DNA from: a virus
DNA length: 52,275 nt
Direction: 5' to 3' (one strand)
Virus record (IMG/VR): IMGVR_UViG_3300025010_000015
Coordinates: 1-52,275 of that record
Every line of letters begins with the position of its first letter. The first letter of the stretch is position 1. This document shows positions 2,372 to 52,275 of this stretch, piece after piece. The notes under the pieces were generated by a model. The model made no database searches. It worked only from the letters and a program-made list of their open reading frames with translations, and was not told where the DNA came from. The position numbers and the translations under genes are program-made.

Positions 2372-3823
2372 ATGCCGCAGAGGATAGCAGATGTAGAGCA
2401 GAGCATGGCAAAGGTGAAGAGCATAAAGCCGAACCCTGGGCCACAAGAGCAGTTCTTGGCTACTGAAGCTGATATTGCGGTGTTCGGTGGAGCCGCTGGT
2501 GGCGGAAAAAGCTGGGCGTTGCTCATGGAATCATTGAGGTATGTCGGGGTGCGTGGATATGAGTGCGCGATATTCAGACGGGAAGCCACACAGATAACCT
2601 CCGGTGGTGGACTGTGGGACACAGCGCACATCCTGTATCCAGCTTTCGGTGGAGAACCGAGGACTACGCCACGGCACTTCTGGACATTTCCAGCTGGCTC
2701 GAAGATTGCGTTTGCGCACCTGCAACATGACAAAAGCGTGAAAGCGTGGGACGGTGCACAGCTCACATTGGTTGGATTTGATGAATTGCAACACTTCACG
2801 GAGGCACAATTCTTTTACATGCTGTCGAGGAACCGTTCAACGTGCGGCGTGCGGTCTTACATGCGTGCTACATGCAACCCCGACCCTGATTCGTTCTTGG
2901 TGAAGTTGTTGGCATGGTGGATTGACGAGGAAGGGTATCCGATTCCTGAACGTTCTGGTGTTGTGCGTTGGTTCATAAGACAGAACGGCGAGCTTATTTG
3001 GTTTGATTCGTATGACGAGTGCTATGCACTGTATCATAAGGAGATAGACTCAGGTGATGCAAGTCCTAAGAGCTTTACGTTCATTCGTTCAACGCTGGAG
3101 GATAATCCTGCTCTGATGGAGCTTGACAAAGGCTACAAGGGCAACTTGAATTCGATGTTTGAATATGAACGGCTGAGATTGCTGAAAGGAAACTGGTTTG
3201 CACGACCGCAAGCTGGCGAGATGTTCAAGACTGGATATTGGAAATACATTGACCGTGAGGACGTGCCGCGCATTGACAAGATGAAGGGCATTGTGCGTTA
3301 TTGGGATAGGGCTGGAACATTGCCGAGCGACAAGAATCCCGACCCTGACTGGACTGCTGGTTGCTACATGATGCTGAGTCCCGATGATAAGTTGTACATA
3401 TACGACATGCGGCATGCGAGATTGGAGCCACATGATGTGGAAATGCTTGTGAAGGACACTGCGGAGCAGGACACACGTGAAGTTCCTATCTGGCTCGAAC
3501 GTGACCCTGGGCAAGCTGGCAAGGCTGAAGTTGCTTATTACATCAGGAATCTAATGGGGTACGACCTGCACCAACGTCAGAAAAGGACGTCAAAGTTGTC
3601 TTATTGGAGGCCGTTTGCATCACAGGTGAAGGCTGGCAATGTGTATTTGGTCAGAGCACCGTGGAATAGAACATTTGTTGATGAGCTGGCGTCTGTGACC
3701 GATGGTTCACAAACAACACATGATGACCAAGCTGATGCCGCATCGGGAGCTTTCATGGTTTTGGCAAAGATGATGAAAGATGACATCAGTGATAGCAAGG
3801 CAACGAAGAACATGGGGGTATGA
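2372..3823 (+). CDS. terL: Terminase large subunit (packaging ATPase/nuclease)
   Basis: 483 residues. Pumps DNA into the procapsid and cuts the concatemer. Walker A GGAAGGGKSW is at residues 39-48. Walker B with the catalytic pair DE is at about 131-138. The C-terminal RNase H-like nuclease is marked by RYWDRAG (about D312), a second acidic cluster WLERDPG (about 374-380), and the late HDDQADA aspartates. Start chosen at 2372, where GGAG lies 8 nt upstream; the ATG at 2405 lacks a binding site. Length fits the family. Confidence 0.95.
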   Translation: MPQRIADVEQSMAKVKSIKPNPGPQEQFLATEADIAVFGGAAGGGKSWALLMESLRYVGVRGYECAIFRREATQITSGGGLWDTAHILYPAFGGEPRTTPRHFWTFPAGSKIAFAHLQHDKSVKAWDGAQLTLVGFDELQHFTEAQFFYMLSRNRSTCGVRSYMRATCNPDPDSFLVKLLAWWIDEEGYPIPERSGVVRWFIRQNGELIWFDSYDECYALYHKEIDSGDASPKSFTFIRSTLEDNPALMELDKGYKGNLNSMFEYERLRLLKGNWFARPQAGEMFKTGYWKYIDREDVPRIDKMKGIVRYWDRAGTLPSDKNPDPDWTAGCYMMLSPDDKLYIYDMRHARLEPHDVEMLVKDTAEQDTREVPIWLERDPGQAGKAEVAYYIRNLMGYDLHQRQKRTSKLSYWRPFASQVKAGNVYLVRAPWNRTFVDELASVTDGSQTTHDDQADAASGAFMVLAKMMKDDISDSKATKNMGV

Positions 3824-45747: not shown

Positions 45748-45861
45748 TTTGCCCTCCCTGTGTCATAATTGGTGTGGCACACCCTGTACGATGCACCACA
45801 CCCCGAACCATGAGACCACGGATAATCGATGTGATAAGTCACTCATACGAGCAGACTTTAT

Positions 45862-46006
45862 GTGGACGGTAGGATTTGAACCTACAATGACAGTGTGTTT
45901 CGTGTATCCACGTTTTCAGCTTTCTACAGGGTGTATCCTGCAACGAACAGCCCTACTTTCTGTCTCGCTAACATCGCATAGCGTTTACCAATTACGCCAC
46001 GTCCAC
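45862..46006 (-). tRNA. Oversized tRNA-like element A
   Basis: Minus strand. Seven-base acceptor stem GTGGACG (46006-46000) / CGTCCAC (45868-45862), D arm GCG...CGC with an 11-nt loop containing TTGGTAAA, and T arm GTAGG-TTCAAAT-CCTAC are all perfect. Next base is A as discriminator; CCA is not encoded. The D arm resembles tRNA-Leu. However, 95 nt separate D and T arms instead of 30-36, and no clean anticodon stem is visible in the standard place. GACAG and CTGTC inside could close a longer stem. It may be intron-containing, have a giant variable arm, or be a tRNA mimic. It starts 6 nt after the gene at 46013-46345. Confidence 0.6.
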
Positions 46007-47337: not shown

Positions 47338-47369
47338 AGTATGCTCCTTATTTGATACGTGATACAATT

Positions 47370-47543
47370 ACGAGTGACAGGATTTGAACCTGTAAGAATG
47401 ATGCTTCAACGTTCTCGTGAACTCCACACCATTTGAATCTCGCCACATAACAGGGTATGCTGGTTTCCTTGTTTTGTTATAGGAATGTGCAAATTACATA
47501 TATCGTCATATGGTTTAGCGTATGCCGTTTCCGCCACACTCGT
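47370..47543 (-). tRNA. Oversized tRNA-like element B
   Basis: Minus strand. Acceptor ACGAGTG (47543-47537) / CACTCGT (47376-47370), D arm GCG...CGC with an 11-nt loop (GAAACGGCATA) and T arm ACAGG-TTCAAAT-CCTGT are perfect. D-arm spacing is identical to element A. A 124-nt segment separates D and T arms. It includes a GTTC-ACGA-GAAC hairpin and a possible AATGGTG/CATCATT stem, and could hold TCAAAT as an anticodon-loop part (CAA, Leu) if about 70 nt were spliced. CCA is not encoded; discriminator is A. Confidence 0.6.
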
Positions 47544-52078: not shown

Positions 52079-52148
52079 AATAGTACCTCTCATTGTGTGA
52101 TTATTCCATTAGATGGAATTAGTGAATTAGTGAGTAGTGAGTTAGTGA

Positions 52149-52275
52149 GCGAACCATTGCCGTGCGAACCATTGCCGTGCGAACCATTGCCGTGCGAACC
52201 ATTGCCGTGCGAACCATTGCCGTGCGAACCATTGCCGTGCGAACCATTGCCGTGCGAACCATTGCCGTGCGAACC
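52149..52275. repeat. 15-bp tandem repeat array, right contig end
   Basis: A partial unit (12 nt), seven complete CGTGCGAACCATTGC units (52161-52265) and 10 nt of another, in the same orientation as the left end. The last 115 bases equal the first 115 bases of the window. The run is 127 nt, a common assembler k-mer size. TTAGTGA-type short repeats precede it. Confidence 0.97.

What the first reader, a model, noticed from the sequence alone, without database searches (positions are those of the whole stretch)
45862..46006. tRNA-like element A: perfect acceptor, D and T arms but 95 nt between D and T arms
Acceptor stem (7/7), D stem (3/3) and T stem (5/5) are perfect, and the Leu-type D arm and TTCAAAT loop are intact, so this is not chance. 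Yet the segment that should hold anticodon and variable arms is about three times too long, and no normal anticodon stem is visible. Group I introns known in tRNA genes are much larger than the extra 60 nt. A short intron, a giant variable arm or a tRNA mimic would each be unusual in a phage.
Basis: partly seen in the sequence, partly recalled or inferred. Interest (0 to 1): 0.75.

Follow-up and report, generated by a model that had tools for sequence, protein, structure and literature searches.

The report
Phage leucine-tRNA mimics without anticodon arm
This phage carries two RNA genes that keep the amino-acid end, elbow and T arm of a leucine tRNA but have a long, unrelated sequence where the codon-reading arm should be; the same unannotated kind of RNA turns up in many unrelated phages, including ones grown in the laboratory, so it can be tested directly.

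Summary
Element A (46006-45861) is a 146-nt tRNA-like RNA: acceptor 7/7, D stem 3/3, T stem 5/5, A73, exactly 95 nt between the arms. Rfam tRNA scores 41.2 bits end to end; plain ARAGORN finds nothing. A second copy, B, lies at 47543-47369.

It is not an isolated oddity. The same build (leucine-type D arm, matched acceptor, U48) occurs in at least 112 viral elements sharing one acceptor sequence and in dozens with others, with unrelated middles of mostly 20-140 nt. Unannotated examples sit in cultured Leuconostoc, Weissella, Lactobacillus, Brochothrix and Bacillus phages. In a close relative (L002) the acceptor, D and T stems are kept, by compensatory changes where they differ, while the middles are wholly different.

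No excision restores an anticodon arm in A or B; the Leu class is near the shuffle rate, while a control set passes the same test. TROVE (Ro60) is absent. A helix ending 2 nt before the T stem is enriched: a giant class II variable arm, the anticodon arm lost or degenerate.

Best reading: non-decoding leucine-tRNA-bodied RNAs with an exchangeable central domain. Their role (decoy or substrate for tRNA-handling enzymes) is inferred.

The parts
46000..46006 (-). Element A, acceptor stem 5' strand GTGGACG
   Evidence: 7/7 pairs with 45862-45868; identical in relative L002
45981..45997 (-). Element A, leucine-type D arm GCGTAATTGGTAAACGC
   Evidence: D stem 3/3, A14 A15 and G18 G19 present; in L002 the D stem changes with a compensatory pair, CG to TA
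45886..45980 (-). Element A, 95-nt central domain in place of anticodon and variable arms
   Evidence: no single excision restores an anticodon arm; no match to any other fetched locus or to the rest of the window beyond chance; folds as a branched domain closed by GACAG/CTGTC
45960..45964 (-). Element A, GACAG: 5' strand of the variable-arm-like closing helix
   Evidence: pairs with 45889-45893 in the MFE and centroid folds
45889..45893 (-). Element A, CTGTC: 3' strand of the variable-arm-like helix, 3 nt before the T stem
   Evidence: across 134 elements helices ending 2 (and more weakly 3) nt before the T stem are enriched
45869..45885 (-). Element A, T arm GTAGG-TTCAAAT-CCTAC
   Evidence: 5/5 pairs; Rfam tRNA alignment
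45861..45868 (-). Element A, acceptor 3' strand CGTCCAC and discriminator A73; CCA not encoded
47369..47543 (-). Element B, second tRNA-like RNA, 175 nt: acceptor ACGAGTG/CACTCGT, A73, T arm ACAGG-TTCAAAT-CCTGT
   Evidence: ARAGORN only with introns; homologue in L002 with 4 double compensatory changes and no broken pair in the 12 acceptor and T-stem pairs
47518..47534 (-). Element B, leucine-type D arm GCGGAAACGGCATACGC
   Evidence: sequence
47394..47517 (-). Element B, 124-nt central domain, unrelated to that of A
   Evidence: in L002 the same locus has a single hairpin of about 32 nt instead

Best explanation
A and B are genes for non-decoding tRNA-like RNAs with a leucine-tRNA body. The parts that tRNA-processing enzymes and bacterial LeuRS read (acceptor stem, D loop with A14 A15 and G18 G19, U48, T arm, A73) are kept by selection. 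The anticodon arm is missing or degenerate, and the region between D and T arms has become a long, exchangeable domain built on a giant class II variable arm. Shown here: the conserved body, compensatory changes in a relative, wholesale replacement of the middle, occurrence in many unrelated phages, and failure of the simple intron model. Inferred: the RNA is transcribed with the neighbouring genes, trimmed and given CCA like a tRNA, possibly leucylated by host LeuRS, but cannot read codons. The most likely use is as a stable decoy or competing substrate for host enzymes that handle or attack tRNAs, with the middle as a separate, fast-changing part.
For: Rfam end-to-end tRNA match. Relative L002: acceptor, D and T stems kept; B has 4 double compensatory changes and 0 broken pairs in acceptor plus T stem, while flanking DNA is mostly 82-98% identical and the middles are unrelated. 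54 of 80 viral hits of a leucine D-arm and T-arm pattern with a 75-105 nt gap have a 7/7 acceptor, which the pattern did not require. U48, also not in the pattern, is T in 51 of 52 elements and in 98% of 134. 112 distinct elements share acceptor AGTCAGG/CCTGACT with middles of mostly 20-140 nt. Helices ending exactly 2 nt before the T stem: 33% of 134 elements with at least 6 bp against 9% in shuffles, with a sharp peak at 2. Same build in cultured phages, unannotated, with a 12/12 sigma-70 promoter just upstream in phiLM33_01 and a strong terminator after the one in Bacillus phage KLEB27-1. E. coli LeuRS needs A73, A15-U48, G18 G19 and elbow contacts but neither anticodon nor variable arm (PMC9976931).
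Against: No RNA data: transcription, trimming, CCA addition and charging are untested. N73 is A in only 35 of 52 mixed elements (57 of 58 in ordinary viral tRNA-Leu), so not all can be leucine acceptors by E. coli rules. The search pattern was built on the leucine D arm, so leucine-likeness is partly by construction. No neighbouring gene is shared, so nothing points to a partner. The cultured examples have a 6-bp T stem and T loop TGCAAAT, which is not the window's form. Element A itself scores only z = -2.8 as a whole in folding, and its middle has no homologue.
Confidence: 0.6

Rival explanations
1. A and B are intron-containing tRNAs; a short insert is removed after transcription and a normal decoding tRNA results.
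For: ARAGORN with introns gives a call. Short insert-bearing tRNAs do exist in phages: in 17 of 37 class I-type elements excision of one 39-56 nt insert, mostly after nt 28, restores a perfect anticodon arm, against 0.5% of shuffles; L071 is a tRNA-Leu(UAA) with an insert in the anticodon loop.
Against: The ARAGORN call also arises in 260 of 300 shuffled middles. No single excision gives a 5/5 anticodon stem in A or B. The Leu class as a whole passes the excision test in 3 of 58 cases, 0.9 expected. Group I introns are far longer, and Rfam finds none in the window. Middles of 20 nt exist, which leave no room for an intron.
Confidence: 0.08
2. Operon punctuation: the tRNA-like fold is only a processing signal, cut by RNase P and 3' tRNA nucleases to separate the messages around it; the RNA itself does nothing.
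For: Elements are intergenic in 44 of 49 loci and the upstream gene is co-oriented in 38 of 44. Acceptor, D and T arms are what such enzymes need (established knowledge). It explains why the middle may vary freely.
Against: Helix placement and local covariation in the middle and the mean folding z of -0.82 suggest the middle is not free filler. Some cultured examples have their own promoter or terminator. A constrained U48 and leucine-type D arm are more than a cutting site needs.
Confidence: 0.17
3. Y RNA: a tRNA body carrying a Ro60 (TROVE) binding module, as in bacterial YrlA.
For: tRNA-bodied elements with GTTATCG or GTTACTT motifs in Nostoc and in large phages co-occur with TROVE genes.
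Against: No TROVE in the window or in relative L002's contig. No such motif in A or B. None of the Leu-type viral records tested has TROVE. A host-encoded Ro60 cannot be excluded.
Confidence: 0.04
4. Decaying tRNA pseudogenes that have picked up random insertions.
For: Middle hypervariable; presence and absence differ between close relatives (Leuconostoc LN25 and Brochothrix BtpYZU03 lack it).
Against: Acceptor, D and T stems are intact in dozens of independent elements and change in a compensatory way in relatives. Decay would hit these arms too.
Confidence: 0.05
5. A functional but bizarre decoding tRNA: the anticodon loop sits in a weak local hairpin (CG-ATGTTAG-CG, anticodon GTT) with a giant variable arm.
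For: The MFE fold of A shows a 2-bp hairpin with loop ATGTTAG; the L002 homologue has a possible GAGTG-CTGTTA-CACTC hairpin (by eye).
Against: Two base pairs and no 5-bp stem. In several other elements fewer than 12 nt lie between the D stem and the variable-arm helix, too few for an anticodon arm. A leucine body with an asparagine anticodon would misread.
Confidence: 0.06

Closest known systems
Bacterial tRNA-Leu (class II)
   Same: Acceptor, leucine-type D arm, U48, T arm, A73; variable-arm helix ending 2 nt before the T stem in many members
   Different: No 5-bp/7-nt anticodon arm; variable region several times too long and unrelated between orthologues
Bacterial Y RNA YrlA (tRNA-like module with Ro60-binding stem)
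   Same: tRNA body put to a non-decoding use, D and T arms kept, size 90-150 nt (PMC8394870)
   Different: No TROVE gene and no GTTATCG/GTTACTT motif in A or B; the Leu class keeps a full 7-bp acceptor stem and has no common binding motif
tmRNA
   Same: tRNA-like end on a larger RNA without an anticodon arm
   Different: D stem intact; too short for a reading frame and pseudoknot ring; no ARAGORN tmRNA call in any of the 83 loci scanned or in Rfam for the window
tRNA-like structures of plant virus RNAs
   Same: viral mimicry of a chargeable tRNA (recalled, not tested)
   Different: these are separate genes in dsDNA phages, not 3' ends of an RNA genome
tRNAs with short inserts at nt 28/29 (seen here in other phages)
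   Same: long tRNA-like genes in phages that ARAGORN misses
   Different: there, excision restores a normal tRNA; here it does not

Membership tests
canonical tRNA-Leu | 7-bp acceptor stem and 5-bp T stem with T loop | tested here: met
canonical tRNA-Leu | Leucine identity set of E. coli LeuRS: A73, A15-U48, G18 G19 | tested here: met
   present in A and B by sequence; identity rules from PMC9976931. Charging itself not testable here
canonical tRNA-Leu | 5-bp anticodon stem with 7-nt loop | tested here: not met
   no arm in place and none after any single excision
canonical tRNA-Leu | variable arm of about 10-24 nt | tested here: not met
   95 nt (A) and 124 nt (B) between D and T arms
intron-containing tRNA | removal of one insert restores a normal anticodon arm | tested here: not met
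   positive control 17 of 37
group I intron | conserved intron core of more than about 200 nt | tested here: not met
   Rfam finds only the tRNA in the window; the insert is 95 nt
Y RNA | Ro60/TROVE partner in the genome | tested here: not met
   the host genome is unknown
Y RNA | Ro60-binding motif in the RNA | tested here: not met
   GTTATCG/GTTACTT absent from A and B by inspection; motif inferred from TROVE-linked loci
tmRNA | tag reading frame and tmRNA fold | tested here: not met
viral leucine-bodied RNAs described here | paired acceptor, leucine D arm, U48, T arm, no anticodon arm, non-orthologous middle | tested here: met

The most novel reading that the evidence does not exclude
A widespread, undescribed class of phage RNA: a leucine-tRNA body stripped of its anticodon arm and used as a chargeable chassis for a hypervariable effector domain, probably shaped by an arms race with host tRNA-acting defences.
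Probability: 0.4. Interest if true: 0.88.

Novelty: new variant of a known kind. Interest (0 to 1): 0.72.

Why it matters
Phage tRNAs are usually explained by codon usage or by replacing tRNAs cut by host defences. These RNAs cannot read codons, yet their body is kept by selection in many unrelated phages, often with no ordinary tRNA found nearby. Standard annotation misses them. They would make the question of what phages use tRNA mimics for testable in small cultured phages, and give natural examples of LeuRS substrates without an anticodon arm and of tRNA bodies used as scaffolds for other RNA domains.

Tried and rejected
ARAGORN intron mode: rejected as evidence, shuffled middles score as often. 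Excision tests for A, B and the Leu class: negative. Y RNA: no TROVE in window or relative. RtcB as a splicing partner: found in 1 of 40 records, a jumbo phage. Antisense role: the longest matches of the A and B middles to the rest of the window are at chance level. Shared motif in the middles: none general. Common neighbour gene: none. Relatives by a second protein (dGTPase-like) gave only the two contigs already known. blastn against INPHARED with a 2.2-kb stretch of the window, or with one full AGTCAGG-type element, found nothing; a 30-nt acceptor plus D-arm query did find cultured phages. First script for antisense matches timed out. Literature: ten searches found no description, but only open-licence papers are held. 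The original bacterial Y RNA paper is not held.

Full report
WHAT IS THERE. The window is one whole IMG/VR record (52,275 bases) of a tailed phage with tape measure, portal and terminase genes, DNA polymerase A, ThyX and proteins like those of phage Pam3. Its only ordinary RNA-family hit is the tRNA model at 46006-45861 on the minus strand, 41.2 bits, full length. A second element of the same build (B, 47543-47369) has acceptor ACGAGTG/CACTCGT, a leucine-type D arm and 124 nt before the T arm. Neither encodes CCA. Both lie between genes of the same strand.

IS IT REAL. The best test is the related contig L002 (L003 is nearly the same), whose protein used as query is 81% identical and whose DNA over the region is mostly 82-98% identical. 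At the place of A it has the same acceptor and T stems and a D stem changed by one double compensatory and one one-sided pair. At the place of B the acceptor and T stems carry four double compensatory changes, one G-T change and no broken pair among 12. The middles are different altogether: A is 146 nt here and 94 nt there, B 175 and 77 nt. So the arms are under selection as RNA helices and the middle is replaced wholesale.

HOW COMMON. A pattern of leucine D arm, 75-105 nt, and T arm was searched in viral contigs. Of 80 loci fetched, 54 have a 7/7 acceptor around it, although the acceptor was not part of the pattern; chance is about 0.1% (one further 7/7 row in that table is the window's own element). 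In bacterial and archaeal genomes (257 billion bases) the same pattern gave 26 hits, 7 with 7/7 acceptors, some of these tandem tRNAs or runs of N. With a gap of 106-136 nt most hits are tandem tRNAs; 10 have a 7/7 acceptor. These counts come from capped samples and are not frequencies. ARAGORN finds no ordinary tRNA in most of the fetched stretches, though some of the whole records do hold tRNAs.

CULTURED PHAGES. A 30-nt query (acceptor and D arm) led to unannotated elements in Leuconostoc phages Ln-9 (125 nt to position 72) and phiLM33_01 (106), Weissella phage WC29P3 (125), Lactobacillus phage phiJL-1 (108), Bacillus phage KLEB27-1 (112, acceptor 6/7) and Brochothrix phages BtpYZU01 (185) and BtpYZU02 (84). 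BtpYZU01 and BtpYZU02 share flanks and acceptor but not the middle, and the D stem changes as a pair (GCG/CGC to GTG/CAC); Ln-9 and LN34 behave the same way (GCG/CGC to GAG/CTC). Relatives LN25, 1-A4 and BtpYZU03 lack the element. These Firmicute-phage elements have a 6-bp T stem and T loop TGCAAAT. A 12/12 sigma-70 promoter ends a few bases before the phiLM33_01 element, and an 11-bp terminator follows the KLEB27-1 element. phiJL-1 also has next to it a 60-nt minimal version with acceptor, D and T arms only.

ANATOMY OF THE MIDDLE. In 134 non-redundant elements the last base before the T stem is T in 98% (the A15-U48 Levitt partner), the third-last is C in 56%, and a helix of at least 6 bp ending exactly 2 nt before the T stem occurs in 33% against 9% in shuffles; the peak is sharp at 2 and gone by 4-5. 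That is the geometry of the class II variable arm of tRNA-Leu, here with its 5' strand 5-56 nt after the D stem. In several elements the space left is too small for any anticodon arm. Element A fits with GACAG/CTGTC, 3 nt before the T stem. Beyond that the middles share no motif and fold slightly better than shuffles (mean z -0.82, s.e. 0.16). Within one small AGTCAGG subfamily the helix covaries.

NOT AN INTRON, NOT A Y RNA. A control search with a class I D arm found 37 distinct elements of which 17 become perfect tRNAs when one insert is cut out, mostly after nt 28; shuffles give 0.5%. The same test on the Leu class gives 3 of 58, 0.9 expected, and nothing for A and B. Among the class I-type elements, those with GTTACTT or GTTATCG sit in genomes with a TROVE gene in about half of cases, and Nostoc has four tRNA-like genes in a row before a TROVE gene; these look like Y RNAs on a tRNA body. 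The window and L002 have no TROVE and A and B no such motif.

MECHANISM. E. coli LeuRS reads A73, A15-U48, G18 G19, A20a and D/T-loop contacts; minimal tRNA-Leu without anticodon and variable arms is still charged (PMC9976931). The class keeps most of this set and drops what LeuRS does not need. The simplest reading is an RNA handled by the cell as a leucine tRNA but unable to decode. Shown: the conserved body, variable-arm geometry, replacement of the middle, spread across phages. Inferred: expression, processing, charging, and the role as decoy or competing substrate for tRNA-handling or tRNA-attacking host enzymes, an idea also raised for YrlA (PMC7790460). Against uniform leucylation: N73 is A in only 35 of 52 mixed elements. 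A processing-signal role (operon punctuation) remains the strongest rival.

VERDICT. Observation confirmed; interpretation partly supported; best filed as a new variant of tRNA-like non-coding RNA, not as a member of tRNA-Leu, intron-bearing tRNA, tmRNA or Y RNA.

Noticed in passing
L352:968-1070, L354:2484-2580, L363:912-1015, L369:14665-14763, L392:5770-5872, L402:10795-10892 (viral contigs): tRNA genes with 42-49 nt inserts, mostly between nt 28 and 29 of the anticodon stem (hairpin followed by a CAGCAA-like motif); excision restores perfect tRNAs with canonical anticodon loops. Looks like an undescribed short-intron family.
   Followed up: partly
L329:4600-5490 and L316:2340-2905 (Nostoc and relative); L236, L358, L362, L374, L377, L403 (viral contigs): tRNA-bodied RNAs with an insert ending GTTATCG or GTTACTT in genomes that also encode a TROVE/Ro60 protein: apparent Y RNAs built as a tRNA with the Ro-binding part in the anticodon arm.
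   Followed up: partly
L071, element at 2899-3011 of the reverse complement: tRNA-Leu(UAA) with an insert of about 47 nt in the anticodon loop, in a tRNA-rich viral contig that also has a tRNA with anticodon CTA.
   Followed up: no
L570 (Lactobacillus phage phiJL-1), upstream of the 108-nt element: A 60-nt tRNA-like RNA with only acceptor, D and T arms (ATCGCTG/CAGCGAT).
   Followed up: partly
L029 and L079: Giant-variable-arm tRNAs with intact anticodon arms, the same odd loop TTGTCTC and discriminator G, possibly serine-type.
   Followed up: no
L430 (record of L075): Three odd tRNA-like genes of 97, 123 and 75 nt within about 500 bases of one phage genome.
   Followed up: partly
window 52119-52262, minus strand: Open frame made of repeats of MVRTA, i.e. 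a short tandem repeat at the end of the record.
   Followed up: no
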